A stretch of DNA of 37,191 bases, taken from contig JAFUVM010000008.1 of NCBI GenBank assembly GCA_017483665.1, forward strand, positions 1 to 37,191. The letters run 5' to 3'. Of the stretch, positions 1 through 35,224 are shown one piece after another. The notes beneath the pieces are model-generated. The model searched no databases. It had not been told where the DNA came from and saw only the letters and a program-made list of their open reading frames with translations. Each line of letters begins with the position of its first letter. The stretch's first letter is position 1. The position numbers and the translations under genes are program-made. Source of the stretch: Bacteroidaceae bacterium (GTDB lineage: Bacteria > Bacteroidota > Bacteroidia > Bacteroidales > Bacteroidaceae).

Positions 1-20
1 AACACAAAACTACAAAAAAG

Positions 21-121
21 CCCCTGAATGGCAATCGCATTCAGGGGTCAATCTTATTTTGCCGCAGAGGGTCATTCATATTTTGCCCGTGAGGGTCAAC
101 ATCGCTTGCCCTCGGGGGTCA
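21..121. repeat. 24-bp tandem array with hairpin, possible IS end
   Basis: The hexamer GGGTCA recurs at 45, 69, 93 and 116, giving a 24/24/23-bp period. The units share a core of GGGTCA followed by a TTTTGCC-type tail. A perfect 10-bp inverted repeat (cccctgaatg at 21-30, cattcagggg at 38-47, 7-nt loop) leads into the first unit. IS21-family elements are known to carry multiple short repeats at their ends, so this could be the terminus of such an element whose genes lie left of the window. That is inference, because no transposase is visible. A short open frame across the array (28-315) is not credible as a gene. Confidence 0.5.
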
Positions 122-317
122 AACGAGCTCGGCTTTTCCAATTGCATTTGTTATGTTTTCTTTCAACCATTTTGTTCGCCAACTCATACTATTCTCTTTT
201 TATGATTAAATCAAAATTATCTTGGTACAGCAAAAATAGCAATATTCATTCAAATAATTTTCTATTTGGGTTCGGTAGGTATGAATATGTTCATTTATGG
301 TACAACTTTTATTAATA

Positions 318-1376
318 TTACTTGCCTTTATATGATTTTTGGATTAAACGACTAACCTCATCAAATCTCTCGTATACAAAAATCTTGATTTCGTTATTTG
401 TAGCAAAAGAAATTTGTGTGATAGGAATATTGGTATATGTTGCATTTTCTAAGAAAATTTCTTTTATTATTATAGGGACATTGGTAATGTCTTTTATTTG
501 GCTATCCTGAATCACGAGACCTTCATTAATGTCTGCATTGATGATGACTGGTCGTGTATCCTTTCCAGAATTGACTTTTTCATCCATAGAAATAACTTCA
601 GATAACTCAATAAATCCATTCTCAAGTATATGGCCGTTCTGTTGATTTGGAGCCGCAAAAATAACCTTCCGGTTTTGTGGATTAACATTATACCATTTCT
701 TAAGTTCTTCTTTACCTTCATCATTGATTTCAGACAAGGGTGAATTAATTTTCAATGTACATTCACCATTTGGTATAACCTTATCTAATGCACCATTCTC
801 AATAAAACGTAGACCGCCTTTGAAGTCTATTTCATTAAACTTACCACTAATTGTATTTGTTTTAAGTTCTTTTACTCCTGCTGGGATAGTAAGTTTTCTT
901 AAGACATGTTCAAAACAAATGGATCCTGGGGAAAGATTTAGAAGATGTTCATCTAGTTCTATGTGTTGCACTGTTTGACGATCTCTATGAAGATGATACA
1001 AGGTTTTCATGTCTTTTGAAAATAATGACCCTGCGGAAGTTCCTAATAAAAATAGATTTATTCCACTTTGTAATTCAATACGACAATTGTCGGCATTACA
1101 ATATTTTTTACCGTTAGGTCTATCTATAGTAACCGATTCAACTGTAAAAGGCAGCAGCAAATGCTTAACGTCGCATTGAATAATAACGGAAGTTATAATA
1201 TAATCAATACTATTATTCAATATTTGTCCTGTAAGATCTATTCTATCATATACAGCTCGGTCTTCATCTTCAATTAAAGTTACTTGAACTTCATTGTTCT
1301 TAATAATATAGCACGGGAAGCGTCTTTTCTCACTGTAGTTCCCGATGCAAAAATCATAAAAGAAATCGTATTTCAT
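318..1376 (-). CDS. BspA-like leucine-rich hypothetical protein
   Basis: This is a 352-residue protein with no signal peptide or membrane segment. The middle part (about residues 150-200) reads LTIPAGVKEL, then an FNEIDFKGGLRFIENGALD stretch. This resembles the BspA-type LRR_5 pattern of Bacteroidales, in which strands such as LTIP, ITF and IGxGAF repeat. Only one or two units are recognisable, so the assignment is weak and the function is unknown. The gene is AT-rich compared with the genes right of 2689. It starts at an ATG at 1376 and has no clear promoter of its own. It lies downstream of the promoter and terminator described at 1473-1864, so it may be expressed by readthrough. It could belong to a genomic island beside tRNA-Ser. 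Confidence 0.6.
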   Translation of the reverse strand: MKYDFFYDFCIGNYSEKRRFPCYIIKNNEVQVTLIEDEDRAVYDRIDLTGQILNNSIDYIITSVIIQCDVKHLLLPFTVESVTIDRPNGKKYCNADNCRIELQSGINLFLLGTSAGSLFSKDMKTLYHLHRDRQTVQHIELDEHLLNLSPGSICFEHVLRKLTIPAGVKELKTNTISGKFNEIDFKGGLRFIENGALDKVIPNGECTLKINSPLSEINDEGKEELKKWYNVNPQNRKVIFAAPNQQNGHILENGFIELSEVISMDEKVNSGKDTRPVIINADINEGLVIQDSQIKDITNVPIIIKEIFLENATYTNIPITQISFATNNEIKIFVYERFDEVSRLIQKSYKGK

Positions 1377-1472
1377 ATACGTAGTCTTTAGTTATAACCC
1401 TAGGCTCCCGTCAGGCGTTAAACCTTAAAAACTATCCATCGGAATAAACAGAAGTTCAAACCTTTTGAACAT

Positions 1473-1826
1473 AAAAAGCGTGAAGCCGATTGATGCTACT
1501 CATGCTTCACGTCTCAAGAGCCTTAGGACTTGCTCTGCCATTTATGAAACATCGAGCAACGTCAAAGACTCCACGCAGTGATATATACACACTACACCCT
1601 TCCTAATAAAAGGATGCGGTATGACATACATACTGTTGGCATCTTATCGTTGCTTGGTCCTAAATGGCATATTGGCATATGCACCCAGAGTGTCCTAAGT
1701 TCTGAGACAGAACACAAGCGTCAACAAAACGCTTTTTTAATATGTTACCTCCGCCGACACCATCTCCGTTGAGTAGGTCATAGAGCGAAAGGATGTAGCG
1801 CAAGTATGTCCGCAGAAATACTTTTG
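1473..1826 (-). ncRNA. Candidate structured RNA or attenuated leader
   Basis: A full Bacteroidota promoter at 1833-1864 points leftward, giving a start near 1826. About 350 nt later a stem (CGTGAAGC with GCTTCACG, 1479-1511) is followed on the minus strand by five T residues (1473-1477), like an intrinsic terminator. Between them there is no credible gene, but there are smaller stems, such as AGAGC/GCTCT around 1517-1536. Beyond the terminator lies a further perfect 7-bp stem at 1454-1470. Open frames inside are short, for example an 8-codon ATG frame encoding MVSAEVTY. It is not tmRNA, RNase P RNA or 6S RNA as far as I can recognise. It could be an independent small RNA or an attenuator for the gene at 318-1376. 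Confidence 0.45.
1479..1511 (-). terminator. Intrinsic terminator-like hairpin
   Basis: An 8-bp perfect stem CGTGAAGC/GCTTCACG encloses a 17-nt loop. On the minus strand it is followed, after one base, by TTTTT at 1477-1473. It would end or attenuate the transcript that starts near 1826. Confidence 0.5.
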
Positions 1827-1832
1827 CCGTTG

Positions 1833-1864
1833 CAAAAGTAATGATTAATTCTTAAATAACCAAA
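1833..1864 (-). promoter_or_regulatory. Bacteroidota-type promoter
   Basis: On the minus strand TTTG (1864-1861) is followed after 20 bp by TACTTTTG (1840-1833), matching the TTTG-N19/20-TAnnTTTG consensus. The nearest coding start downstream is about 450 nt away, which suggests a long leader or an RNA gene. Confidence 0.6.
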
Positions 1865-2138
1865 GAATTCCTAAAATATCCTAATTATTTTAAATGTATT
1901 TAAGGTTACAAAAGTGAATAGCACTAATATTCTTATGGATTAGCCTTGGACATTTGGCAAAAGTTATACAAAATCTTTTATGTCATGCCTTTTGAAAATA
2001 AAACGTATGGGGAGTATAACGGAAATTCATATTAATATACGAAGAAGAGAGAAACTTTTCAAAAAACGTAGTACAATATATAAAACTTTTATTAGTACGA
2101 TTATGAGAAAATAGATTTTCACTGACAAGAAAGAAGTT
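1865..2138. other. AT-rich intergenic, nothing recognised
   Basis: This is AT-rich DNA between the leftward promoter at 1833-1864 and the DUF3853 gene. I see no gene, clear TAnnTTTG box for the rightward gene, or repeat. Open frames on the minus strand across 1983-2362 are antisense to the DUF3853 gene and look random. Confidence 0.5.
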
Positions 2139-2468
2139 ATGAAGAAACTTCTCACCACTATGTACGATAGTGTATGCGCACAGAAAGAGTTGTTGGAACT
2201 GCTCATAGAAGAATTTGAAGCAGAAGAAAGCGAACAGTCGCAGATAAAAGATGAGCCACGAGAACTCATCAAAGGTGTCAGCGGGCTTGCTAAATTCCTT
2301 GCCTGTGGAAGCACGAAGGCCCAAAACATTATTAACTCCGGCATCCTGCAGAAACGAGACATCGCCTATCGTGCTGGAAACAGGTGGCGTTTCAACAAGA
2401 CACTACTAACAAGACTGCTTGAGGATGAACCAGAGATACTCAACAGAGTTTGCTCTGAAGCAGCATAA
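2139..2468 (+). CDS. DUF3853 family helix-turn-helix protein
   Basis: This 109-residue protein has an acidic, helical N-terminus (residues 1-45, many Glu). The C-terminal part is winged-helix or excisionase-like, with the core IKGVSGLAKFLACGSTKAQ, then a turn and GNRWRFNKTLLTRLL. The order of a GLAKFL helix, a recognition helix with SGIL and a wing ending in arginine or lysine matches the DUF3853 family. That family is common on Bacteroidales integrative elements and is thought to bind DNA. No integrase is beside it here. The gene ends in a strong hairpin at 2488-2529 and sits just beyond a tRNA-Ser, consistent with a mobile-element remnant. Confidence 0.75.
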   Translation: MKKLLTTMYDSVCAQKELLELLIEEFEAEESEQSQIKDEPRELIKGVSGLAKFLACGSTKAQNIINSGILQKRDIAYRAGNRWRFNKTLLTRLLEDEPEILNRVCSEAA

Positions 2469-2487
2469 GCAAAACCCCTACATCATT

Positions 2488-2529
2488 AACAGCCATATGG
2501 TATTTCGACATGATTGCTATATGGCTGTT
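2488..2529 (+). terminator. Hairpin terminator after DUF3853 gene
   Basis: A perfect 11-bp inverted repeat, AACAGCCATAT (2488-2498) and ATATGGCTGTT (2519-2529), has a 20-nt loop and starts 20 bp after the stop codon. The following T-rich tract is short, so termination strength is uncertain. Confidence 0.55.
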
Positions 2530-2641
2530 TATCAGATACATACTTTAACATCTCCTTGGATAGTTTAGGAATCGCTATTTTCAGAATTCTCCGAGTTTTG
2601 GATGAGATTTGGGTCTGATTTTGGGTAACGGAGAATAAGAA

Positions 2642-2682
2642 AATCTGCGTAACCTATTGAAAATCAATTAGTTACGCAGATT
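2642..2682 (-). terminator. Terminator of the tRNA-Ser transcript
   Basis: A 12-bp perfect stem, AATCTGCGTAAC (2642-2653) with GTTACGCAGATT (2671-2682), lies 6 bp beyond the tRNA 3' end. On the minus strand it runs into a TTTTCTTATT tract, as expected for an intrinsic terminator. Confidence 0.75.
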
Positions 2683-2688
2683 AATCAG

Positions 2689-2773
2689 CGGAGAGAGAGG
2701 GATTCGAACCCCCGGTGCCTCTCGGCACGCCGGTTTTCAAGACCGGTGTAATCGACCACTCTACCATCTCTCC
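2689..2773 (-). tRNA. tRNA-Ser (UGA)
   Basis: The 85-nt gene folds as a class II tRNA. The acceptor stem GGAGAGA (2773-2767) pairs with TCTCTCC (2696-2690), with discriminator G at 2689. The anticodon loop CTTGAAA contains TGA. The variable arm is long (GTGCC GAGA GGCAC) and the T loop is TTCGAAT. CCA is not encoded. A promoter box lies just upstream and a terminator just downstream. Its 3' end borders the AT-rich segment at 1-2688, a typical arrangement for an element integrated at a tRNA. Confidence 0.95.
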
Positions 2774-11441: not shown

Positions 11442-12680
11442 ATGAAAGCCAAGCGACCCCTACTTTTCGCCCTCGCGTTGCTGCTCTGCATGCTCTGCCG
11501 TGGCGAGGACTCCGCCGAACGGACGAAGCGCGACTTCCTGCAGATGGGACTCCAGCCCTACGAGGCAACGGACATAAAGCTCCTGCCCACCGCCACCGAG
11601 AAGTTCAGCGACCTCTTCGATGCCGTGGACCACGCCGAGAAGTACATCCTGCTGGACTACTTCAAGTTCCAGCAGGACAGCATCTGCGGCCTGCTCCTGG
11701 AGAAGCTGCGCCGCAAGGTCCGGCAGGGCGTGGAGGTCAGAATCATCTTCGACGGCTTCGGCAACAAGAACAGCGACCAGCCGCTCTCCGACACATTGCA
11801 GGCACGCATCCGGCAGTCCGGCATACAGATAGTGGGCTTCGACCCCATGCGCTTCCCCTGGATAAACCACCTCATGCACCGCGACCACCACAAGATAGCT
11901 GTCATCGACGGCCATACGGTCTACACGGGCGGCATGAACGTGGCCGACTACTACCTGCACGGCAAGCCGAAGGTAGGCCGCTGGCGCGACATGCACATCC
12001 GCATGAGCGGCTCCATCGTCCGGCCCTACGAAGAACTGTTCTGGAAGATGTGGAGCCTCACCCCCGACCCCTCTCCGAGGAGAGGGGAGATTTTCGCTGC
12101 AGAACTCCCCTCTCCTCGGAGAGGGGTCGGGGGTGAGGCTTTTGTTGCTTCCCGCTGGCCCAGGGAGTCGCCCCGCATCATGCGGCAGACGTACTGCACC
12201 TGCATCGACAATGCCGACCGCCTCATACAAATCGTCAACCCCTACGCCATGCTCTTCGGCGAAGTGCGGGCCGCCCTGCGCAGGGCACTGGAGCGAGGCG
12301 TACGCGTGCAGTTCATGGTCTCCACCAAGAGCGACGGCAAGGCGAACGACGACGTCATCGGTCTGGAGATGCGCAAGCTCATGAAGCGCGGAGCTGAAGT
12401 CTACTACTACGAAGACGGCTTCCACCACAGCAAAGTGATGATGGTTGACAGCCTCTTCTGCACCGTCGGCACAACGAATCTCGATGCGCGCTCACTCTGC
12501 TTCGACTACGAGGTGAACGCCTTCATCTTCTCCCCCGACGTGACGCACGAACTGCAACGCGTCTTTGCCGACGACGTCCGGCACAGCACCCTGCTCACCC
12601 CCGAGGTATGGAAGCAACGGTTTCCCCTCCGGCGCCGCATCCGCTCGCGCTTCTTCACCATCGCAAAAAGATTTATGTAA
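11442..12680 (+). CDS. Phospholipase D/cardiolipin synthase-like protein
   Basis: A 412-residue protein with a hydrophobic N-terminal signal (residues 5-20) and two HKD motifs: H149-x-K151-x4-D156 in HHKIAVIDGHTVYTGGMN, and H329-x-K331-x4-D336 in HHSKVMMVD with GTTNLDARS after it. Paired HKD motifs form one active site for phosphatidyl transfer or hydrolysis, as in cardiolipin synthase. The spacing and the GGMN/TNLDxRS followers favour a cardiolipin-synthase-like role at the membrane. Residues about 205-233 are a foreign insert (SLTPDPSPRRGE to SPRRGVGGEA) translated from a perfect palindrome. It lies between the two halves, where a loop is expected, so activity may survive. The CE15 gene follows by 15 bp. 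Confidence 0.85.
   Translation: MKAKRPLLFALALLLCMLCRGEDSAERTKRDFLQMGLQPYEATDIKLLPTATEKFSDLFDAVDHAEKYILLDYFKFQQDSICGLLLEKLRRKVRQGVEVRIIFDGFGNKNSDQPLSDTLQARIRQSGIQIVGFDPMRFPWINHLMHRDHHKIAVIDGHTVYTGGMNVADYYLHGKPKVGRWRDMHIRMSGSIVRPYEELFWKMWSLTPDPSPRRGEIFAAELPSPRRGVGGEAFVASRWPRESPRIMRQTYCTCIDNADRLIQIVNPYAMLFGEVRAALRRALERGVRVQFMVSTKSDGKANDDVIGLEMRKLMKRGAEVYYYEDGFHHSKVMMVDSLFCTVGTTNLDARSLCFDYEVNAFIFSPDVTHELQRVFADDVRHSTLLTPEVWKQRFPLRRRIRSRFFTIAKRFM
12054..12140. repeat. 87-bp palindrome inserted in frame in PLD gene
   Basis: Two perfect 36-bp inverted arms (12054-12089 and 12105-12140) enclose a 15-nt loop. Each arm contains its own small hairpin, CCCCTCTCC GA GGAGAGGGG. Total length is 87 bp, exactly 29 codons, with no stop in the reading frame used. 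The encoded peptide SLTPDPSPRRGE is not part of the phospholipase family. It looks like a mobile or amplified palindromic repeat that inserts without breaking frames. Confidence 0.9.
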
Positions 12681-25624: not shown

Positions 25625-27076
25625 TCAGTGAAAAGGTTTATTGTCGGCTGCGAAAAAAACGCGCTCCCCCTGAGGTTGAGGCAGGACTGACGTGCCGTTC
25701 CAAACAAGATGGCCGCCCACCCAAGTCTTCTCTGCCTGCCACTTCAGAGTACGGCCCTCCAGGGGGCTCCACCCGCAACGGCTCTCGATGCAGTCCGTCG
25801 TTACCGTCCACGGCTTGCGGCGCACTAAGGTCAGGTCTGCCTTGTAGCCCTCCCTGATGAAACCGCGCTCGGGGATGCGGTAAAGGCGGGCTGGGTTGTG
25901 GCACATCAGCTCGACGAGCCGCTCCGGGCTGAGCACGCTCTTGCTGCCGTCGGTCCCTGGCTCTTCGGTCAAGGTGAGCACGGCAGGCAGGGAGAACTGC
26001 ACCATCGGCATGCCGCTCACCGCCTTGAACACGCCGCCCTCCTTCTCGCTGAGCAGGTGGGGCGCATGGTCGGTGGCAATTGTCCGGATGCGTCCGTCGG
26101 TCAGGGCACGCCGCAAGGCATCCCGGTCAGCCGCCGTCTTGATGGCCGGATTGCACTTGATGCGGGCACCGAGCGCCTCGTAGTCTTCGTCCGTGAAGAG
26201 CAGATGCGGCACGCAGGCCTCGGCAGTGATGTGTTCGTTGCCTGGTTCGAAGAGGTCCAACTCCTGATCCGTCGTGATGTGTGCAACATGCAGACGTGCC
26301 CCTTCCTCCTTGGCAAGACGGACGGCAAGGCTCGAACTGCTGAAGCATGCCTCGTGGTCGCGGATAAGGGAATGAAGGCGAATGGAGAGGTCGTCTGGAA
26401 GTGAAGAATGAAGAGTGAAGAATGAAGAATTTCCTACCGGACTGGAAACAGGCGCGTGGGATGCCACGGTGGAAGCAAATTCTTCATTCTTAATTATTAA
26501 TTCTTCATTCCGCTTGATGCGCTCCGTGTCCTCGCAATGTGTCACTATCAGGGTCGGCGATTCGCGGAAGATGCGGTGGAGCACCTCTTCGCGGTCTACG
26601 AGCATGTTGCCCGTGCTGCTGCCCATGAAGAGCTTCACGCCCGGGGATTGCGTCACGTCGAGACGTTTGATTTCCTCGATGTTGTCGTTTGTGGCCCCGA
26701 GGAAGAAGCCATAGTTCACGTAGCAGCGTCCTTGTGCCATCGCATAGCGTTCCTGCAAAAGCTGGAGCGTCGTAGTCTGCGGCACGACGTTGGGCATGTC
26801 GAGAACAGTGGTCACGCCGCCCCGGGCCGCCGCGCGTGTCTCGGTCTGCATGTCGGCCTTGTGCGTCAGGCCCGGCTCCCGCATGTGCACATGTCCGTCG
26901 ATGACGCCGGGCAAAAGCAGAGCACCCTCTGCCTCCACCACCTCGTCGCCGTCGCGGACAGGCAGCTCCCTGCCACAGGCAATCTCAGCGATGCGTCCGT
27001 CCTCCATGCGGACAGAGCCTTCGCATCGCTTTCCCTCGCTTATGATGGTTGCTCCTTGAATGACAATCCCCTTCAT
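25625..27076 (-). CDS. pyrC: Dihydroorotase
   Basis: A metal-dependent amidohydrolase of pyrimidine synthesis that cyclises N-carbamoyl-aspartate to dihydroorotate. Motifs are DGHVHMREPG (residues 60-69, metal ligands), VKLFMGSSTG with the active-site Lys, LIVTHCED (about 177-184), LHVAHITT, and TIATDHAPH (catalytic Asp). About 483 residues from the ATG at 27076. This start is favoured over an upstream opening at 27163 because MKGIVIQGATI begins the fold. Residues about 189-226 (RNEELIIKNEEF to NSSFFTLHSSLP) are an in-frame insert from a palindromic repeat and replace or enlarge the normal surface helix after HCED. The three-methyltransferase operon ends 62 bp upstream, and no -7 box is seen between. 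Confidence 0.93.
   Translation of the reverse strand: MKGIVIQGATIISEGKRCEGSVRMEDGRIAEIACGRELPVRDGDEVVEAEGALLLPGVIDGHVHMREPGLTHKADMQTETRAAARGGVTTVLDMPNVVPQTTTLQLLQERYAMAQGRCYVNYGFFLGATNDNIEEIKRLDVTQSPGVKLFMGSSTGNMLVDREEVLHRIFRESPTLIVTHCEDTERIKRNEELIIKNEEFASTVASHAPVSSPVGNSSFFTLHSSLPDDLSIRLHSLIRDHEACFSSSSLAVRLAKEEGARLHVAHITTDQELDLFEPGNEHITAEACVPHLLFTDEDYEALGARIKCNPAIKTAADRDALRRALTDGRIRTIATDHAPHLLSEKEGGVFKAVSGMPMVQFSLPAVLTLTEEPGTDGSKSVLSPERLVELMCHNPARLYRIPERGFIREGYKADLTLVRRKPWTVTTDCIESRCGWSPLEGRTLKWQAEKTWVGGHLVWNGTSVLPQPQGERVFFAADNKPFH
26405..26510. repeat. In-frame palindromic element in dihydroorotase
   Basis: A perfect 13-bp inverted repeat, GAATGAAGAATTT (26420-26432) and AAATTCTTCATTC (26477-26489), encloses a 44-nt loop. 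It is flanked by further GTGAAGAATGAAG and TTCTTCATTCC copies. The frame stays open through it in the dihydroorotase direction. Boundaries are estimated from where the protein leaves the family pattern. Confidence 0.7.
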
Positions 27077-27138
27077 ATTTCTCTCTTTTCTTTCCTTGTC
27101 TTTTTCACAATAATGCTGTAGAGTCACTGTACTATTAT

Positions 27139-30100
27139 TTACCCCAGTAGGACTGTTTCGCACAAATCACTATATTGCTGATACGATGGAAGTTTCTCAA
27201 CCAGTGCCATTATCTTGCTTCTGCGATGTTGTAGCGTCCCAGAGTTGGGGTTAGTGTCTAGATGGGTTGCACGTAATTCACCAATGAGTTGCCGGGTGAT
27301 GTCTGCCAGTTGTTTGTGAGCGATATTTTCAGCATCGTATGACTGAATTGAAGATGGGGCCAATGTGTGAATGTGACGTTTGCCTTGTAGTCCTTCTGTC
27401 TGAAGGGGAGAAATGAGTTTAGTGATTGATTCGCTGTTGAGCAACCCTACAAGATACAGGGCTTCATCTTCACTATTTGTTGCATACCAATACAGAGTCT
27501 GGTCAACGATATATCTGTCAGAGGCATCTAATTTAACATAGGTAGCACATGGCTTGCGTCCTCCTGCTCCAAAAAGCACAAGGAACTTTTTTCCGTTGAA
27601 ACACTGCTTTTCCAATTTTCCTCGCCAATTGAGCGCATTCCTAAAGATGTCCCGATTGGCTCCTTGGAGAACTTTGTATTCGCGCTCAATCTCATTGAAC
27701 GTATTTTTGACTGGACGCGGCATAGCGTTGATGTGCTTGTCCGTCAAGCATTGCCAAATTCCGCCTGCATTTACCTTCACAGGGAGTAGTGCTAATGGAA
27801 CTTCTGACAAGCCAAAGGGTGTAACAATGTTGGAGACCAGCACCTTATAGAAGTATCGCTTGGGGATGACAGCCGGAGGAATCCTATAGTCCCTTCCTTT
27901 GTGCATGTTCTGGAGGTAATATGCGTATCTTGAATTCGGTGTTATGGAGCTGACAGAATATGCACTGCCATTCTCTTCAAGATTGAAGAAAAAGATGTTT
28001 CTCGGCATGATGTCGGCTCCTTGCTCAAAATGAGGACTTGCCGATGAGATGACTGTCTGGTGTACCTCTTCATTAGTCCATATTGTCTGACCACCATGTT
28101 GTTTTGTAATAAATACGGTTGGTTCAGCCCTTTCCTTGCTGATGATATTCATGCCAGGCAGACTGGTGAAGTCTTCCCATGACTCCTTTGTTCCAAAGAG
28201 AACAATTGCCTTGTTCTTGAAAACGCTTTCGGGCAACAGCCACAAGGAACTGAACCGCGTGTCTATTTGCATCCGAGACTTTGCAAAACCTCCCGTTCTG
28301 AATTTTTGTTGATGATGGCCTGCAAGTACAGAATGAGGAAGAACACATCCGTACACACCGTTCTCGTTTAAGTATCTTCCGATTGAACTTAAAAGAAAAA
28401 TCGTGGCTAATTCCACATGTAGGAAACTTGCATCAGAAGGCTTGATGCCCAAATCTTTTGCCAACAGATTGAGGGCGGTATGGTAGGGATTGTCGGCCAG
28501 CTTGCTTAATGCCAGCCAAGGCGTATTTGACACGATGCCATTGAACTTGGCGGTGATGAGACTTGGGCGCATCGTGTTTTTCAAGAAGAACGACCAAATA
28601 CCATTCTTGCCTTCCTCATTCAAGTCGTACATGACTTTTTGAAGGTCGCTGGCAAAATTCAGTGTTGTTTCGTCTGAGACATCAAGGCTTTCTGCTATTA
28701 TTTCAGCAAATTCTTCCCGATTGTAGGCATCTGCAATGCAATCGTAACACTTGTTGACAATCGCATCGAACAAGAGCCGATTGTCTGCCAAAAGCGATTC
28801 TGGCAATATAACATGTTTATCGAAGAGCTTAAGAATCAAATTATTGTCGTTGTCCTCAGATATGGGCTTGTGGATAAACAGCGAGTCAGCATGATAGATG
28901 GGTATCATCATGTCAAAATGATTGTCAAGGAGTGTCCCCACACTTATTATCCAGTTAATCTTAGCCAGAATGACGGCGAGCGGATCTACGTCAAAACCTG
29001 TAATGCAGTTTTGGATAACTTGCTTGTTGGCTTCAACGTCATCGCCAAGGAATGAATTGATGTGCTTGATGGTCGCAACAACCATTGAGCCGGAGCCACA
29101 ACACATATCCACGAACATCGGGACTTCGCCGTTAGGCAGCATGGATATTACGTTGGCCACCAACTTTTCGGCAATCCAGCTTGGAGTCAACTCCTGACCA
29201 AGCAACAGTCGATGACTTTTTTCTGAAAGTTGCACCATAATGAGTCCGAACAAATCTTCTTCCTGAGACCTTGAGAAGTCATAGATGCTCAGGTCTCTCT
29301 GCATGGCCTTAATTGTGGGGAGCAGGGTCTGAAGATTATCATTCAAAAGCCACCCGAAACAGTCATGCTCGGCAAAGTTGCTGATGCCACGATTCTCAAA
29401 AAAAGCGCCATCGGCAATTTGAATTAGTTGGCGGTCATCAGAGTTCAATGCCTCCTTAGATATAAAATTAGCACACAGGAGTTTAGCCAACAAGGAAATA
29501 TAGAACTCATGCGAATAGGTCTCGTTGGAGTCGATGTATTCTTGCGATGACTTTTCTATAGACGTGAACGAAGTCCACATGTCCTTAATCATCTTGAAGT
29601 ATTCGGGACAGGCGGAGACCTGAGCGCCAATATAGTCGACGACATTCTCAATATAAGGTGCGGAAAACTTACTGTCCAATCCAAAGTCCAACGCCAGTGA
29701 CTGCGCATTCAGGGGACGACCGCCTACACGGCCCAGATATTTTGAAAGGAATACTATAAGTTGTTCGGAACTTTCTTCATCGGCAGTCATAATATGGAGT
29801 CTTGCAATTTCCTTCAGTTCAATATTATCCTGCGTATATTCAGACGGAGCAAGGCTGTCATCGTTGCAAATGGCATAAACATACCAGTTCAGCGTGTCAG
29901 AGAGAACGCCTTGAACAATTTGTTTGTCGTTGCCATCTGTGACCAACGTAGCACAATATTCGCGAACCTGCCTAAGACCTTCGTCAAAGATTGACTTCAC
30001 CGTTAGATTCTTCTCGTATTCAATAGCTGTACTGGCTATAAAATTGTCGATGAAGCCTGAGACTTTGCGATTGTTACGCTCCATCTTGACGCGGTGCTCG

Positions 30101-30267
30101 CCTCGTCGGATGTGCTCTTCTACCCATTTGGTATCGGCAGGGAACATCAGCCGCAAGTATGACGTGAAATTCTCACGGAGCCTTGACTCCGGTTCGTGTT
30201 CTTCCTGCATCTGCAAGGCTATGGTGATACACTCCTTGGCTTTTTGTATATGCTGTTTATCTATCAT
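27139..30267 (-). CDS. Nuclease-like/N6-adenine methyltransferase fusion
   Basis: A 1042-residue protein, third gene of the methyltransferase operon. Residues about 25-110 contain FIDNF (D74), EYEK (E83, E85, K86) and QxxxY (Q100-Y104). This order resembles PD-(D/E)XK nucleases of type IIG fusions, though a canonical (D/E)xK triad is not exact. Residues 356-600 form the methyltransferase core: GQELTPSWIAEKLV, motif I VDMCCGSGSM (387-396), GFDVDPLA, and a motif IV that reads NTPW (582-585) instead of NPPW. The C-terminal 400 residues probably hold the target-recognition region. It overlaps the preceding gene by 4 nt (ATGA). Possible roles are a restriction-modification enzyme or, given NTPW, a methyltransferase with altered activity. 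Codon use is more AT-rich than its neighbours. Confidence 0.72.
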   Translation of the reverse strand: MIDKQHIQKAKECITIALQMQEEHEPESRLRENFTSYLRLMFPADTKWVEEHIRRGEHRVKMERNNRKVSGFIDNFIASTAIEYEKNLTVKSIFDEGLRQVREYCATLVTDGNDKQIVQGVLSDTLNWYVYAICNDDSLAPSEYTQDNIELKEIARLHIMTADEESSEQLIVFLSKYLGRVGGRPLNAQSLALDFGLDSKFSAPYIENVVDYIGAQVSACPEYFKMIKDMWTSFTSIEKSSQEYIDSNETYSHEFYISLLAKLLCANFISKEALNSDDRQLIQIADGAFFENRGISNFAEHDCFGWLLNDNLQTLLPTIKAMQRDLSIYDFSRSQEEDLFGLIMVQLSEKSHRLLLGQELTPSWIAEKLVANVISMLPNGEVPMFVDMCCGSGSMVVATIKHINSFLGDDVEANKQVIQNCITGFDVDPLAVILAKINWIISVGTLLDNHFDMMIPIYHADSLFIHKPISEDNDNNLILKLFDKHVILPESLLADNRLLFDAIVNKCYDCIADAYNREEFAEIIAESLDVSDETTLNFASDLQKVMYDLNEEGKNGIWSFFLKNTMRPSLITAKFNGIVSNTPWLALSKLADNPYHTALNLLAKDLGIKPSDASFLHVELATIFLLSSIGRYLNENGVYGCVLPHSVLAGHHQQKFRTGGFAKSRMQIDTRFSSLWLLPESVFKNKAIVLFGTKESWEDFTSLPGMNIISKERAEPTVFITKQHGGQTIWTNEEVHQTVISSASPHFEQGADIMPRNIFFFNLEENGSAYSVSSITPNSRYAYYLQNMHKGRDYRIPPAVIPKRYFYKVLVSNIVTPFGLSEVPLALLPVKVNAGGIWQCLTDKHINAMPRPVKNTFNEIEREYKVLQGANRDIFRNALNWRGKLEKQCFNGKKFLVLFGAGGRKPCATYVKLDASDRYIVDQTLYWYATNSEDEALYLVGLLNSESITKLISPLQTEGLQGKRHIHTLAPSSIQSYDAENIAHKQLADITRQLIGELRATHLDTNPNSGTLQHRRSKIMALVEKLPSYQQYSDLCETVLLG

Positions 30268-32099
30268 GACCTTGTTTCGATATATCGCTTTAGTATCTGC
30301 CTCAAATGGCTCTTCTTTTCTTCCAGCATCTTGTTCTCGAATCCTAATGCCTTTAGTAAGACATTGTCGATTTCATCGATTATTGTCTCTGCAGCCTGCT
30401 TCGGTGTTGATATGAGAACTTCGCCAAGGGCATCCAATCGGGCAACTTCAGCGTCAGTGAGTCGAGGATAATAGGCTTTCTTAAATTGTACAGCATCTAT
30501 TTTCAGGGCACCTCCACCCATCACCGTGCCACATTCCTCAACGAGGACTTTGCTCCAGGTACTGTTGAGCAGGGCAAGCAGGCTTCTAGCTGTTAAGCGA
30601 CTTCCTTCAAGAATATTGAATGTGACGAAGTTTGCATCAATTACCATTGTCTCGTCAGTGTCGTTGATGTAAGTAACGGCTTCCTTGCTATTCACTCTCG
30701 GCATAAACAGTTTTGCAACGTGGCGCGGCTGAAGCGGGGGTATCATGTACCAAAATCGGAAGGGTTTGTCCCGGCGCCCGCTCACATTGGTCTTTACCGA
30801 AGAGAGTTCAGGAATGGGTTTTCCTTTGATTTCACATTTTTCGGAGAATCGAATATATGCAGAAAGGGGTTCTGGAAGAGTGGCATACCTCCTTTTGTTG
30901 ATGTCGGGGGTAGTAGCAAGGTCTGCGCTTGTCGCGGCCTCTTGGATATACAACAGCCTGTAAGCTTGGCGGGGAGAAACAGAAAATGTATCTCCAAGCC
31001 CTCCCTGACTTTGAAGAACGCTGACAAAATACTCGTCAGAATCAGTCACCAGTTTGGGGTATAGGGAGGAATAATAGCCACCGGGCTTGGCTTTCAAGTA
31101 AAAGAAACCATTGGCACCAGTTCTCAGGCCTTGTGATACCTTGACCTGACAATCAGACAGAGAAATCAACTTTTCACTGGGTATTTCGCCCAATTGCCTG
31201 AGTTTGCTTAACGAACTAAGTCCTGTAATTTGCTCCGAAAAGAGGTCTGCCTGTCTGATACTGCTGAACTCGCACAAGCCAGGGATTGAGATTCTTTCAC
31301 GGACAACTCTCTGAAATCTTTCTGTGTCACCAATGCTCCCATATAGACTCTGACGGGTACTTGCCCTGTCATAAAGATCTATATAGGTGACGTTCAGGGT
31401 TCTATCTGCGTGACAGCATCTTTTGGCAACAACAACAGAAGTCCTAACCTGAGCAGAGTCCTTAAACCAAGTGTTGCTCACGTCGTTGATGACATATTTT
31501 ATCTCAAAAAAATCCTTCAGCAGCGTGTGTACGGGAGTGGCATATTCACGCGTTTGCCACGAATTGGGTACGACTATTGCCATCTGACCACCGTCTTTGA
31601 CAAGCATCATACAGAGCAACCAGGATGGAACAGCCAAATCTGCCAGACCGGAAAAGTCGGTGATGGCTCTCCGCATTATTATTTTCTCTGATGCTGTCAT
31701 TGTCGTTGCTTTTGCAAGATAATCCAACAGACTTTGCCGGATGTTGCCCATTGCCATCTGTATGCCACCAGAGTTGTTGAGCGTTTCGCGACGGACGTAG
31801 GGAGGGTTGGTCACTACGAGGTCATAACCTTCTATGGAATAATGCTGAATGGTAGTGAGAGCGAATGCGTCTCCACAGAATACTGTCGCCGAAGGGTAGC
31901 ATTTCCGGGCGTACTCCTGAACAAGTGCATCAATCTCAACACCAGTCATCTCCACGTCTTCGTAAGCAGAAAACATATCCCCTATGCCGCACATGGGGTC
32001 GATTATTGACTTTATGTGTGACTTGTCAACGAGCGTCGAAATCAAATGCGCCAACCTGACACCAGAGAAGAACTGGCCCAGTACCTTCTGCTTATTCAT
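30264..32099 (-). CDS. N6-adenine DNA methyltransferase
   Basis: A 611-residue protein. The amino-terminal catalytic region has LGQFFSGVRLA (motif X-like, residues 7-17), motif I DPMCGIGDM (34-42), the acidic end of strand 2 (TGVEIDA) and motif IV TNPPYV (97-102). It then continues with LVKDGGQMAIVVPNSW. This gamma-type order is that of type I/IIG N6-adenine methylases. Residues about 290-600 form the specificity-like part (WYMIPPL, ARSLLALLNSTWSKV, with the ALLNST sequence common in target-recognition domains). No nuclease motif is visible. It starts 3 bp after the gene at 32103 and overlaps the next by 4 nt, so the operon is translationally coupled. Confidence 0.85.
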   Translation of the reverse strand: MNKQKVLGQFFSGVRLAHLISTLVDKSHIKSIIDPMCGIGDMFSAYEDVEMTGVEIDALVQEYARKCYPSATVFCGDAFALTTIQHYSIEGYDLVVTNPPYVRRETLNNSGGIQMAMGNIRQSLLDYLAKATTMTASEKIIMRRAITDFSGLADLAVPSWLLCMMLVKDGGQMAIVVPNSWQTREYATPVHTLLKDFFEIKYVINDVSNTWFKDSAQVRTSVVVAKRCCHADRTLNVTYIDLYDRASTRQSLYGSIGDTERFQRVVRERISIPGLCEFSSIRQADLFSEQITGLSSLSKLRQLGEIPSEKLISLSDCQVKVSQGLRTGANGFFYLKAKPGGYYSSLYPKLVTDSDEYFVSVLQSQGGLGDTFSVSPRQAYRLLYIQEAATSADLATTPDINKRRYATLPEPLSAYIRFSEKCEIKGKPIPELSSVKTNVSGRRDKPFRFWYMIPPLQPRHVAKLFMPRVNSKEAVTYINDTDETMVIDANFVTFNILEGSRLTARSLLALLNSTWSKVLVEECGTVMGGGALKIDAVQFKKAYYPRLTDAEVARLDALGEVLISTPKQAAETIIDEIDNVLLKALGFENKMLEEKKSHLRQILKRYIETRS

Positions 32100-32102
32100 G
32101 TC

Positions 32103-33947
32103 CTACCGAAAGAAGTATTTCGCGTCAAGTGTTATCTCTAAATTGTTTTCTATACACCGCATAATGTACTTGGAAAAATTGCTGACAGCACGTTCTTTGT
32201 CTTTGCTTTCTCCGCTGGAATTAATCAGTTCGTTGGCAATGGACTTGTCATCAGCATATCTACAGGGACGTGATTCCTGATGGGCCTTGGCGAGTAGAAT
32301 GAGGGGGTCGCCCTTGACTGTGACTTTAGAATTGGTCTGCTTGAAAGTAAACTGTTTCTTGTCAAGTATGCTCACATTTTCAGATTCAAACCCCACCTGT
32401 TTGTAGGAGTCAACGATAGCACGCCATATCTCGGCTTTGGCAGAATGAAACACCAAAGTGCATTTGCCGACGTCGGAAAGGACTCTGCTCATACCGCTGA
32501 ACACCTGTTGCATCAATTCATGATAGCGCAAAAGAGGTTTGTCTTGCGACCAATTGATAATAGTCTCGTAGGTGTTGTCAGTAATATGTCCAAGCCATGC
32601 CTCGTTTATTTGGTTGATCTCTGAATAAGGGATAAAGTCGCCAAAGGGTGGATCTGTGAAGATATAATCAACCGATTTGGACTCCAGGTCAATATGGGTA
32701 CTGCTTTCATTACGGAATTCTACCACGCTATTCGAGACCTCTGTCTTTTGGAATGCCTCAACGAAAGTTTTAATCTTTCGTCGTAATCCAAGGAAGATGT
32801 TCTTTTCAACAGGAAGGCTGCTAATGTAAAGCACTCCCGGCTGTGCTCCCGTGATGACAAAGTCCTTGCTGTCCTTCTTCACCACAACACGTGTCATAAG
32901 CGTAGAGTGCGAACTGTTGTAACTCAGCAGGAATACTTTCAAGGCGTCTCGTATTTCGGCGGGATACGACTCTATTTGCTTCCACAGTTTCGACATGACA
33001 AAGACATTCCTCTGTGTATAGAAATGCTGTAGATGGGTAATGCCAAAGTGATAGCCGTGACGATAAAGTTCTCCCCAATGAATCTTGTAGTCAGGTACGT
33101 CGGACATATCAAGGCCTTGAACCAACTCACGGTAGGATTGATTGTCCTCATTGGTAGCAAGCCTGCTCCAGTTCTGGCCTTCTGTTTCTCCGTATATTTT
33201 ATACAAAACCCTTTTTTTCTGCATGACATCGACACCAAGTTTACTGTCATGCACGAGTTCGGTCACCCGCTCAACGTCTGAGGTGTTTATCTTGCCTCTG
33301 CAATATGGGCAATCAGTCTCTTTACGCATCCTCATGGGGCTGCTTTCTATAGCAACATCACTATATCTGAATGTCTGGTGGCAATGAGGACATTTTACTA
33401 CATCACTCCATATTGCATATCGGATGTGTCCATTGTTGCCTTTCGGGTCAGATGTCTGATACAGCTTTCCATATTCTTTCTCTACCGTATCCAGCAGTGC
33501 TGTGGCATAAAGCTCAAATAACCGAGAGGGGGTGTCGCACATAACTCTACCCAAAAGGCATCCGATGGTGCTGATTTCGTAGACAATCGCGTGACGAGGA
33601 CCCCATTGCAGTTTCAACCCCATTTTTGCTGCGATTTCTTTCATTGAATCAGTAGGAGCATCGGCCAGTTTTGTCGCTATTCCAGTTGTCCCGCTACCCC
33701 CAAAGGGGTCGAGTATCGTATCGCCAATATCTGTGTGACTTGCGATAAAAAGAGCCTCGGCCTCAGCGGAGATTTTTGTTGGATAGGAAAACGCGTTGAA
33801 AAGTGCACCCGACCTCGTAGACGGGAAGGGCTGAGAATAGAGAACATCCAAGCCGTTGTCTGATCCATTCCTCTGAATGGCATGAATCTGGGCAACTGGC
33901 AAGATATGTGATCTTGTATGCTCATCTATTTTAACAGCAACGCCCAT
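32103..33947 (-). CDS. Zinc-ribbon beta-type DNA methyltransferase
   Basis: A 614-residue protein, first gene of the operon. Motif IV and motif I come in the permuted order of alpha/beta N6 or N4 methylases: ILDPFGGSGTTGIA (motif I, residues 78-91) near the N-terminus and FTDPPFGDFIPYSEIN (motif IV, about 430-445) later. Between them are two CPxC knuckles, CPHC (186-189) and CPYC (213-216), likely a zinc ribbon. The overall layout resembles the adenine-specific methylases containing a zinc ribbon (COG1743-like). The N-terminus contains an RSGALFNAFSYPTKIS segment. No nuclease is visible. The operon promoter is at 34000-34007. Confidence 0.85.
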   Translation of the reverse strand: MGVAVKIDEHTRSHILPVAQIHAIQRNGSDNGLDVLYSQPFPSTRSGALFNAFSYPTKISAEAEALFIASHTDIGDTILDPFGGSGTTGIATKLADAPTDSMKEIAAKMGLKLQWGPRHAIVYEISTIGCLLGRVMCDTPSRLFELYATALLDTVEKEYGKLYQTSDPKGNNGHIRYAIWSDVVKCPHCHQTFRYSDVAIESSPMRMRKETDCPYCRGKINTSDVERVTELVHDSKLGVDVMQKKRVLYKIYGETEGQNWSRLATNEDNQSYRELVQGLDMSDVPDYKIHWGELYRHGYHFGITHLQHFYTQRNVFVMSKLWKQIESYPAEIRDALKVFLLSYNSSHSTLMTRVVVKKDSKDFVITGAQPGVLYISSLPVEKNIFLGLRRKIKTFVEAFQKTEVSNSVVEFRNESSTHIDLESKSVDYIFTDPPFGDFIPYSEINQINEAWLGHITDNTYETIINWSQDKPLLRYHELMQQVFSGMSRVLSDVGKCTLVFHSAKAEIWRAIVDSYKQVGFESENVSILDKKQFTFKQTNSKVTVKGDPLILLAKAHQESRPCRYADDKSIANELINSSGESKDKERAVSNFSKYIMRCIENNLEITLDAKYFFR

Positions 33948-33999
33948 GTCTGTAATTAATGTTTTACTTATCGCTTCGTTAGCGCGACTTCTTTGGCTG

Positions 34000-34007
34000 C
34001 AAAGTTA
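34000..34007 (-). promoter_or_regulatory. -7 box of methyltransferase operon
   Basis: TAACTTTG on the minus strand lies 52 bp before the first gene. The -33 match is weak (a TTGA-like element slightly too far upstream). Confidence 0.55.
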
Positions 34008-34159
34008 AGCATTTTCCGTGAGAATCTTTCAATTCCTCGCAAAAAATACACAGTATTTAATAAAAATCTTTGGTTTGTTGCCGGGAAAAGTGACTGCTTT
34101 TCCTCTAAAGGGAAAAAACAATTTTTTATTTGACTGCCTTATGATTCACTTAATTGTTG

Positions 34160-34167
34160 TACCTTTG
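34160..34167 (+). promoter_or_regulatory. -7 box of asparaginase gene
   Basis: TACCTTTG lies 22 bp before the ATG at 34190. The frame also opens at TTG 34154, but that is upstream of the box and cannot be transcribed from this promoter. The region 33948-34189 otherwise holds only a small hairpin (TTTTCC/GGAAAA near 34098). Confidence 0.6.
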
Positions 34168-34189
34168 CAGAAAATTCACGGACACGACT

Positions 34190-35224
34190 ATGACGAACCA
34201 AGCAAAAGTGCTGCTGATCTACACCGGCGGGACCATCGGCATGCACCGCAACCCGCACACCGGGGCGCTGGAGCCCTTCGACTTCGACGGACTCCTGCAG
34301 AATGTTCCCGAACTGAAGCTGTTGGACACACACATAGAGACCTGTCAGTTCCAGCCGCCAATCGACAGCAGCGATATGTCGCCAAAGCACTGGACGAGGC
34401 TGAGCCACGTGATAGCCGACCGCTACGACCAGTTCGACGGCTTCGTCGTGCTGCACGGCACCGACACGATGGCCTACACCGCCTCGGCTCTTTCGTACAT
34501 GATGGAGAACCTGACCAAACCCGTCATCTTCACAGGCAGCCAGCTCCCCATCGGCCAGCTCCGCACCGACGGCAAGGAGAACCTCATCACTTCCATCGAG
34601 ATAGCCTCGGCCCGGGACAGCGAGGGGCACGCCAGGGTGCCGGAAGTGGGCATCTTCTTCGACGGACACCTGCTGCGTGGCAACCGCACCACCAAGCAGA
34701 GTGCCGACGAGTTCAATGCCTTCGAGTCGTTCAACTACCCCCATCTCGTGGATGCCGGCGTGAACATCGTCTACCACAGCGAACGCATCCTCCAGCCCGA
34801 CTGGGACCGCCCCATGAAACCCCACTTCCGCCTGGACAACAACGTCATCATCTTCTCGCTCTTCCCGGGCATCCGCGAGGACCTCATCCGCCACATCATC
34901 CACACGCCCAACCTGAAGGCCATCGTCATGCGGACCTTCGGCTCGGGCAACGCTCCGCAGAACCCGTGGCTGCTCAGCGCCCTGAAGGAGGGGACACGCA
35001 ACGGCAAGGTAATCGTCAACATCAGCCAGTGCATGCAGGGCTGTGTGGAGATGAACCGCTACGACACGGGCTTCCAACTGAAGGAGGCGGGCGTCGTGAG
35101 CGGCTACGACTCGACGGTGGAGAGCGCCGTCACCAAGCTGATGTTCCTGCAGTCGCACTACGACGACCCTGAGCAAGTGCGGCGCCTGATGAACCAAAGC
35201 ATCCGCGGAGAAATAACCGTTTGA
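34190..35224 (+). CDS. ansA: Type I L-asparaginase
   Basis: A 344-residue cytoplasmic enzyme hydrolysing L-asparagine to aspartate and ammonia. The sequence has LIYTGGTIGM (first catalytic Thr, residues about 8-17), VVLHGTDTMAYTASAL (second catalytic Thr and Asp), QLPIGQLRTDGKENLI and the typical C-terminal LFPGI and QCMQGCVEM segments. No signal peptide is present, which favours the type I (ansA) form over secreted type II. The start at 34190 follows from the -7 box position. It is divergent from the methyltransferase operon and has normal GC composition for the window. Confidence 0.93.
   Translation: MTNQAKVLLIYTGGTIGMHRNPHTGALEPFDFDGLLQNVPELKLLDTHIETCQFQPPIDSSDMSPKHWTRLSHVIADRYDQFDGFVVLHGTDTMAYTASALSYMMENLTKPVIFTGSQLPIGQLRTDGKENLITSIEIASARDSEGHARVPEVGIFFDGHLLRGNRTTKQSADEFNAFESFNYPHLVDAGVNIVYHSERILQPDWDRPMKPHFRLDNNVIIFSLFPGIREDLIRHIIHTPNLKAIVMRTFGSGNAPQNPWLLSALKEGTRNGKVIVNISQCMQGCVEMNRYDTGFQLKEAGVVSGYDSTVESAVTKLMFLQSHYDDPEQVRRLMNQSIRGEITV

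What the first reader, a model, noticed from the sequence alone, without database searches (positions are those of the whole stretch)
27139..33947. Three dissimilar DNA methyltransferases in one operon
Three coupled genes (3-nt gap, 4-nt overlap) encode a zinc-ribbon beta-type methylase, a gamma-type N6 methylase and a nuclease-like methylase fusion. The block is AT-richer than the flanking asparaginase and pyrC genes, so it was probably acquired by transfer. Standard R-M systems have one methylase; BREX and DISARM have other signature genes (PglZ, helicases) that are absent here. The set could be a compact restriction or defence module in which several methylases protect against one nuclease domain, or a modification-only system.
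Basis: partly seen in the sequence, partly recalled or inferred. Interest (0 to 1): 0.75.

Follow-up and report, generated by a model that had tools for sequence, protein, structure and literature searches.

The report
Conserved mobile three-methylase restriction-type cassette
Three different DNA-methylating genes, one of them fused to a predicted DNA-cutting domain, recur together in distantly related bacteria, a plasmid and phages, and look like a compact and possibly undescribed kind of anti-virus restriction system.

Summary
In detail: three coupled minus-strand genes (33947-32103, 32099-30264, 30267-27139) encode a Zn-ribbon amino-methyltransferase (MTase) related to the BREX-3 methylase, a gamma-class adenine MTase, and a type IIG-like nuclease-MTase fusion. 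They are one conserved unit: the same order recurs in Prevotella, a second genus of the window's family, a Hymenobacter plasmid, an Acidobacteriaceae MAG, Pseudoalteromonas and six viral-collection contigs, one with terminase, portal and capsid genes. In viral contigs genes 2 and 3 as baits give the same six contigs; gene 1 gives five of them plus other relatives. Of 17 weaker gene-3 relatives, 15 could be tested upstream and none has genes 1 or 2. In a close relative of the host pyrC lies next to ansA, so the insert holds just these three genes, without integrase. MTase motifs (except NTPW in gene 3 of this lineage) and a D...E-x-E nuclease signature are conserved; all three genes are under purifying selection. 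No ATPase, helicase or PglZ gene lies in the insert. Most likely an ATP-independent restriction-modification cassette: the third protein cuts and marks, the other two add marks. Activity, nuclease fold and DNA targets are not shown. New variant of a known kind.

The parts
32103..33947 (-). gene 1 (P0003): 614-aa amino-MTase with Zn-ribbon insert, core-only relative of BREX-3 PglXI/BrxXI
33690..33710 (-). gene 1 motif I, residues 80-86
   Evidence: D80, F82, G84, S85, G86 invariant in 10 of 10 aligned cassette copies
33300..33392 (-). gene 1 Zn-ribbon CxxC...CxxC (C186, C189, C213, C216), in the insert between motifs I and IV
   Evidence: four Cys invariant in 10 of 10 aligned copies
32643..32654 (-). 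gene 1 motif IV DPPF (432-435)
   Evidence: invariant in 10 of 10 aligned copies
30264..32099 (-). gene 2 (P0002): 611-aa gamma-class N6-adenine MTase with C-terminal target-recognition-like region
31797..31808 (-). gene 2 motif IV NPPY (98-101)
   Evidence: invariant in 11 of 11 aligned copies
27139..30267 (-). gene 3 (P0001): 1042-aa type IIG-like fusion: PD-(D/E)xK-like N-terminus, gamma-class N6-MTase, C-terminal region
29875..30189 (-). gene 3 N-terminal nuclease-like domain (residues 27-131)
   Evidence: conserved E27, E57, D74, E83-x-E85, Q100; fold not confirmed
30013..30048 (-). gene 3 D74...E83-Y-E85 putative catalytic signature
   Evidence: 11 of 11 aligned cassette copies; 12 of 13 aligned solitary relatives have D...E-x-E and one has E-x-K
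29089..29109 (-). gene 3 MTase motif I DMCCGSG (387-393)
   Evidence: invariant in 11 of 11 aligned copies
28516..28527 (-). gene 3 MTase motif IV: NTPW here (581-584)
   Evidence: NPPW in 8 of 11 copies, NTPW in the three copies of the window's lineage (window, L012, L035)
27079..34158 (.). inserted segment: stands against 169 bp between pyrC and ansA of relative G053 (L085 11549-11717)
   Evidence: blastn arms 26494-27078 (88%) and 34159-35217 (97%) are neighbours in L085
33997..34007 (-). TAACTTTGCAG, Bacteroidota-type -7 promoter motif (name recalled) heading the operon; the same motif heads pyrC in the empty-site relative
   Evidence: promoter role inferred

Best explanation
A compact, horizontally moving restriction-modification cassette. 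Gene 3 is a type IIG-like enzyme: one polypeptide carrying a PD-(D/E)xK-type nuclease (D...E-x-E), an adenine MTase and a target-recognition region; it is the predicted scanner and cutter and makes one mark. Gene 2 (gamma N6-adenine MTase) and gene 1 (BREX-3-type MTase with a Zn-ribbon recognition insert) are constant partners that add further marks, so that host DNA carries the full set and unmarked incoming DNA is cut, without ATP-driven translocation. Shown here: the unit, its order, mobility, the gene 3 clade, motif conservation, purifying selection and absence of ATPase, helicase or PglZ genes from the insert. Inferred: nuclease activity, adenine/cytosine targets, that the marks protect against gene 3, and anti-phage function.
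For: Co-occurrence by three baits: gene 3 in genome contigs gives 3 loci, 3 of 3 with all three genes; gene 3 in 395 phylum genomes gives 2 high scorers (>1200 bits), both with all three, while of the 17 weaker hits (197-380 bits) 16 were fetched, 15 with at least 3.2 kb upstream, and none has genes 1 or 2; gene 1 in viral contigs gives 26 loci, of which 5 are complete cassettes; genes 3 and 2 in viral contigs each give the same six contigs; gene 2 in 301 family genomes gives 2, both cassettes. Gene 3 copies (11) form one clade at 100/100 apart from 13 solitary IIG-like relatives. Distance matrices of the three proteins correlate at r = 0.98-0.99. dN/dS window against L012 is 0.11, 0.17, 0.11 for genes 1-3; 0.07 for residues 1-135 and 0.08 for the MTase part of gene 3. 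Empty site. Some neighbours elsewhere are defence-type: OLD-type ATPase + UvrD helicase (L013), OLD-like ATPase (L014), ABC-three-component genes (L007), PLD/NgoFVII-like nuclease (L013, L095, L096).
Against: No activity data. The nuclease fold is read from the motif pattern only: the AlphaFold model of gene 3 is unusable (pLDDT 39) and a profile of the domain finds no solved nuclease. The usual catalytic Lys is replaced by Glu. Motif IV of gene 3 is NTPW in the window's lineage. Co-occurrence is not strict for gene 1: a copy inside its clade (L097/L098) stands without genes 2 and 3. Copies in phage genomes fit self-protection of phage DNA as well as defence. Why three marks would be needed is unexplained.
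Confidence: 0.6

Rival explanations
1. Modification-only cassette: three MTases that mark DNA, protecting the carrying element (phage, plasmid) against host restriction; the nuclease-like domain is a dead DNA-binding remnant.
For: Copies sit in phage or mobile contigs, one beside terminase, portal and capsid genes; E replaces the catalytic Lys; a free-standing viral-collection copy of gene 1 exists (L097/L098).
Against: D, E, E and Q of the nuclease signature are invariant in 11 of 11 aligned copies across several phyla and residues 1-135 have the lowest dN/dS of gene 3 (0.07); some copies have defence-type neighbours and the window's copy stands alone between two metabolic genes.
Confidence: 0.22
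2. A narrower form of the best explanation (the two are not exclusive): a type IIG enzyme that needs helper MTases. All three act on one asymmetric target, gene 3 marking one strand and genes 1 and 2 completing protection of the other strand or of a degenerate site.
For: Gene 3 is nearest to type IIG models (169 bits) and its tested relatives stand without genes 1 and 2; paired MTases in type II systems with asymmetric sites are established knowledge (recalled).
Against: Two different classes of extra MTase with separate recognition regions are more than such a site requires; targets unknown.
Confidence: 0.4
3. BREX-3 or BREX-related remnant: gene 1 is a leftover BREX methylase that joined two unrelated MTases.
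For: PglXI match 346 bits over residues 46-552.
Against: Gene 1 copies, together with L098, form a clade at 100/100 with a long stem (1.12) apart from the BREX-3 rows; no BREX gene among the window proteins tested; the only PglZ domain over cut-off in the 78%-complete own assembly is fused to a response-regulator receiver.
Confidence: 0.05

Closest known systems
Type IIG restriction-modification enzymes (PADLOC REase_MTase_IIG, PDLC03630)
   Same: Gene 3: N-terminal nuclease-like domain, gamma N6-MTase, C-terminal recognition-like region in about 1040-1100 aa; alignable with solitary IIG-like proteins of Bacteroidota.
   Different: Gene 3 copies form a separate clade and in the 12 loci of that kind found here come with two extra MTases, gene 1 being frameshifted in L007 and cut by the contig end in L118.
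BREX type 3 methylase BrxXI/PglXI
   Same: Gene 1: same core over PglXI positions 112-620 in one stretch, with a four-Cys insert between motif I and motif IV (BrxXI described in PMC12839542, section 26).
   Different: Nothing matches PglXI positions 621-919 (BrxXI has a C-terminal region of three HTH-like domains), and there are no BrxC, helicase or PglZ partners. PMC12839542 section 26 reports no homologues of the insert outside BREX; these cassettes would be such a case.
DUF499-centred BREX-Related systems (Type-1 to -3 BR)
   Same: RM-like logic with a Zn-finger-insert MTase and nuclease effectors, some of HKD type (PMC12839542, sections 29 and 33 and passages).
   Different: BR systems have a DUF499 ATPase and a Swi2/Snf2 helicase; the insert here has neither. 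BR MTases carry DUF1156; gene 1 matches the DUF1156 antiphage model at 28 bits against a cut-off of 1000.
MADS (methylation-associated defence), Mad2 methylase
   Same: Weak similarity of gene 2 and gene 3 MTase domains to the PADLOC mad2 model (57 and 28 bits).
   Different: Far below the NCBIfam cut-off (16 bits against 720).

Membership tests
Type IIG R-M (gene 3) | nuclease, MTase and specificity in one polypeptide | tested here: inconclusive
   MTase motifs and a D...E-x-E N-terminus conserved; PADLOC IIG model best; nuclease fold not confirmed
Type IIG R-M (gene 3) | works as a single gene or with at most one partner MTase (recalled) | tested here: not met
   by gene content only: the 12 loci of the clade have two further MTases; whether they are needed is untested
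Type IIG R-M (gene 3) | cuts at a fixed distance from its methylation site | not testable with these tools
   needs enzyme assay
BREX type 3 | BrxXI-type MTase with Zn-finger insert | tested here: met
   one stretch 46-552 to 112-620 of 919; four Cys invariant
BREX type 3 | C-terminal HTH region of the MTase | tested here: not met
   614 aa; model positions 621-919 unmatched
BREX type 3 | BrxC ATPase, BrxHII helicase and PglZ in the locus | tested here: not met
   insert holds three MTase genes; none found among 22 other window ORFs scanned: 12 with Pfam, 10 with PADLOC; own assembly has only a receiver-PglZ protein over cut-off (assembly 78% complete)
DISARM | DrmA/DrmB helicase genes | tested here: not met
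   insert holds three MTase genes; no match among the other window ORFs scanned
MADS | Mad2 above curated cut-off | tested here: not met
   16 bits against 720
MADS | the other mad genes | tested here: not met
   insert holds three MTase genes only; own genome not searched for mad genes

The most novel reading that the evidence does not exclude
A separate, minimal class of self/non-self discrimination: a BREX-3-type methylase freed from all ATPase, helicase and PglZ parts, an adenine methylase and a type IIG-like nuclease together write and read a multi-mark identity code, so that loss of any single mark licenses cutting. It would be BREX-like marking with ATP-free restriction, carried as a three-gene cassette by phages, plasmids and chromosomes.
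Probability: 0.25. Interest if true: 0.8.

Novelty: new variant of a known kind. Interest (0 to 1): 0.6.

Why it matters
A conserved set of three unlike MTases with one nuclease-like domain does not fit the usual one- or two-methylase R-M systems (recalled). It raises a testable question: why does one restriction unit need three marks, from three unlike recognition modules? It also places a BREX-3-type methylase outside any BREX context, which may help separate what the methylase does from what the ATPase and helicase do. The clean 7-kb insertion with defined borders makes it easy to move into a laboratory strain.

Tried and rejected
Structure: AlphaFold with four-row alignments gave gene 3 pLDDT 39, pTM 0.28 (not used) and gene 1 pLDDT 55, pTM 0.53; Foldseek of the gene 1 model against PDB gave nothing at E <= 0.001. 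Sequence search of the PDB: nothing significant for genes 3 and 2; gene 1 matched DpnA/CcrM round motif I at E about 0.001-0.003; the nuclease-domain profile found no nuclease up to E 10.

Scans that found nothing: gene 3 alignment of two rows and gene 2 alignment of five rows in viral contigs, probably because the patterns drawn were narrow; wider alignments found six loci each. Gene 1 profile at E <= 1e-100 in 398 and 247 genomes drawn from the phyla of the Pseudoalteromonas and Acidobacteriaceae genomes found those two centres and one 353-bit relative, G992/L091, which groups with the BREX-3 rows in the tree: the cassette is rare. Gene 3 in 101 relatives: 5 match, and only the own genome holds a full copy. 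Phage records: one weak match each for genes 3 and 1. Plasmid records: 78, 11 and 62 match genes 3, 2 and 1; only the Hymenobacter one was found to hold the set, and neighbourhoods were read for 5 of the gene 1 matches and for none of the other gene 3 or gene 2 matches.

Rejected: BREX remnant (own clade, no partners); MADS and DISARM; the pair of gene-1-like MTases on an Arthrobacter plasmid as a close parallel (its second MTase is a gene 1 relative, not gene 2). No repeat of 14 nt or more lies at both borders of the insert; a shorter target-site duplication was not looked for.

Literature: nine searches of the held library listed no paper whose title or abstract start describes this three-gene set; most subscription journals are not held and REBASE was not searchable. 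PMC12839542: abstract, outline, sections 26, 29, 33 and passages seen. PMC12458937 and PMC12707154: passages only. All other papers: search listings only.
Full report
OBSERVATION. The three genes are as described: 614, 611 and 1042 codons on the minus strand, 3-nt gap and 4-nt overlap. The block has G+C 0.455 against 0.585 for window 3001-27000. Gene 1 (32103-33947) matches N6_N4_Mtase and, far better, PADLOC PglXI (346 bits, residues 46-552); gene 2 (30264-32099) matches Eco57I/N6_Mtase; gene 3 (27139-30267) matches N6_Mtase and PADLOC type IIG models (169 bits). The direct neighbours are pyrC (amidohydrolase) and ansA (asparaginase). Of the other window ORFs, 10 scanned with Pfam gave mainly rhamnose-use genes and a PLD-domain protein 14 kb away (11442-12680), and 10 scanned with PADLOC gave no match; some of these ORFs overlap on opposite strands and are not all genes.

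THE THREE GENES ARE ONE UNIT. With gene 3 as bait in genome contigs, 3 loci were found: Prevotella sp. RGIG3773 (L012, 85-87% identity), an Acidobacteriaceae MAG (L013) and Pseudoalteromonas sp. MMG010 (L014); 3 of 3 have genes 1, 2, 3 in order. In plasmids the best match of each gene is the same Hymenobacter cellulosilyticus plasmid, where the three are consecutive; gene 1 is frameshifted there. In 395 Bacteroidota genomes, 19 match the gene 3 profile at E <= 1e-30; only the window's genome and G330 (same family, other genus) score above 1200 bits, and both have the cassette. Of the other 17 (197-380 bits), 16 were fetched and none shows genes 1 or 2. In one of the 16 (L051) the gene starts at the contig edge, so 15 were really tested upstream (3.2 kb or more). 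The seventeenth lies on a 3.7-kb contig and was not tested; three of the 16 have broken or truncated frames. In viral contigs gene 1 as bait gave 26 loci: 5 complete cassettes (L092-L096), one cut stretch with parts of genes 1 and 2 (L099), two with gene 1 alone in what looks like one and the same sequence (L097, L098), and 18 more distant ones without genes 2 or 3 in the stretch held, some of them short. Genes 3 and 2 as baits each gave six loci on the same six contigs: those five plus one whose gene 1 is cut by the contig start (L118). Gene 2 in 301 genomes of the family gave 2, both cassettes. In all, 12 loci carry genes 1-3 (gene 1 frameshifted in L007 and cut in L118); L092/L093 and L095/L096 are near copies of each other.

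PHYLOGENY AND SELECTION. Gene 3 copies (11) form one clade at 100/100 against 13 of the solitary relatives. Gene 1 copies (10) together with L098 form a clade at 100/100 with a long stem, apart from BREX-3 and other relatives; L098, which stands without genes 2 and 3, falls inside it, next to L094-L096 at 85/84, so the 10 alone are not one clade. Pairwise distances of the three proteins over 10 loci correlate at r = 0.98-0.99: this fits joint transmission but is also expected of any genes that share a history. Between window and L012 dN/dS is 0.11, 0.17 and 0.11 for genes 1-3; within gene 3 it is 0.07 (residues 1-135), 0.11 (136-345), 0.08 (346-700) and 0.17 (701-1042).

CATALYTIC SIGNATURES. 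Gene 1: motif I, DPPF and four Cys of the ribbon in 10 of 10 aligned copies. Gene 2: NPPY in 11 of 11, motif I D-x-M-x-G-x-G in 11 of 11. Gene 3: DMCCGSG in 11 of 11; motif IV NPPW in 8 of 11, NTPW in window, L012 and L035. The N-terminus of gene 3 has D74, E83, E85 and Q100 in 11 of 11; residue 86 varies (K, R, P, S). Of 13 aligned solitary relatives, 12 have the same D...E-x-E and one (L042) has K in place of the second E. E at the Lys position is known from BamHI (recalled), so the signature fits an active PD-(D/E)xK enzyme but does not prove one. No solved nuclease matched the domain and the model of gene 3 was useless.

MOBILITY. In relative G053, whose asparaginase gene is 97% identical in DNA, pyrC and ansA are neighbours: homology runs to window 27078 and resumes at 34159, and 7,080 bp of the window stand against 169 bp there. 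So the insert is just the three genes and short flanks, with no integrase and no repeat of 14 nt or more at both borders. A TAnnTTTGCAG motif lies 25 nt before pyrC in G053 and 49 nt before gene 1 in the window, on the same strand. The cassette seems to have entered between the pyrC promoter and pyrC, and pyrC would now be read through from the operon (inference). Elsewhere the cassette lies on a plasmid (L007), near an integrase-type recombinase (L094), and in phages: L118 has TerL, portal and capsid genes beside it; L092 has endolysin, integrase-type recombinase and DNA polymerase matches.

OPTIONAL PARTNERS. A PLD nuclease (NgoFVII-like) lies upstream in L013 and directly downstream in L095/L096; the L013 and L095 copies are 44% identical. 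Small HTH proteins precede the cassette in L092, L093 and L089 (the longer stretch of L035). OLD-type ATPase plus UvrD helicase (L013, opposite strand), OLD-like ATPase (L014) and ABC-three-component genes (L007) are neighbours. None of these stands beside the cassette in the window, so the three genes seem to suffice as a unit.

MECHANISM. The best reading is an R-M cassette: gene 3 scans, cuts and marks; genes 1 and 2 add marks. The MTase part of gene 3 stays under strong constraint even with NTPW. The main doubt is whether it restricts at all; phage-borne copies would also suit modification-only protection.

RELATION TO KNOWN SYSTEMS. Gene 1 has the BREX-3 BrxXI core with the Zn-finger insert but nothing that matches its C-terminal region (PMC12839542, section 26). 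That paper reports no homologues of the insert outside BREX. The own assembly (78% complete) has one PglZ domain over cut-off, in a receiver-PglZ protein, and one hit below cut-off. It is therefore not filed as BREX, BR, DISARM or MADS. Gene 3 looks like a type IIG enzyme but differs in its constant company. I call the whole a new variant of R-M.

Noticed in passing
L097 and L098 (gene-1-like ORF at L098 7788-9818): A viral-collection sequence carries a free-standing copy of gene 1 that falls inside the cassette clade, without genes 2 and 3: loss of the partners, or use as a solitary MTase.
   Followed up: partly
L011 9977-17660 (Arthrobacter plasmid pZXY23): Two different gene-1-like MTases in tandem followed by a hypothetical protein, an ATPase and another hypothetical: a different multi-methylase cluster.
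   Followed up: partly
L013 4446-5519; L095 15199-16284; L096 15256-16341: Related PLD/NgoFVII-like nucleases (L013 and L095 copies 44% identical) recur beside the cassette on either side, possibly an optional extra effector.
   Followed up: partly
L094 11335-13947: Downstream of the cassette, a 264-aa protein without Pfam match and a 609-aa QueC-like protein (cut by the end of the stretch).
   Followed up: no
window 1-2773: AT-rich end of the window (G+C about 0.34-0.42) next to a tRNA-Ser gene at 2688-2773; may be another island.
   Followed up: no
window 25625-27163: pyrC lies 62 bp behind the cassette with no TAnnTTTGCAG motif of its own, so the acquired operon may drive a host pyrimidine gene.
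   Followed up: partly
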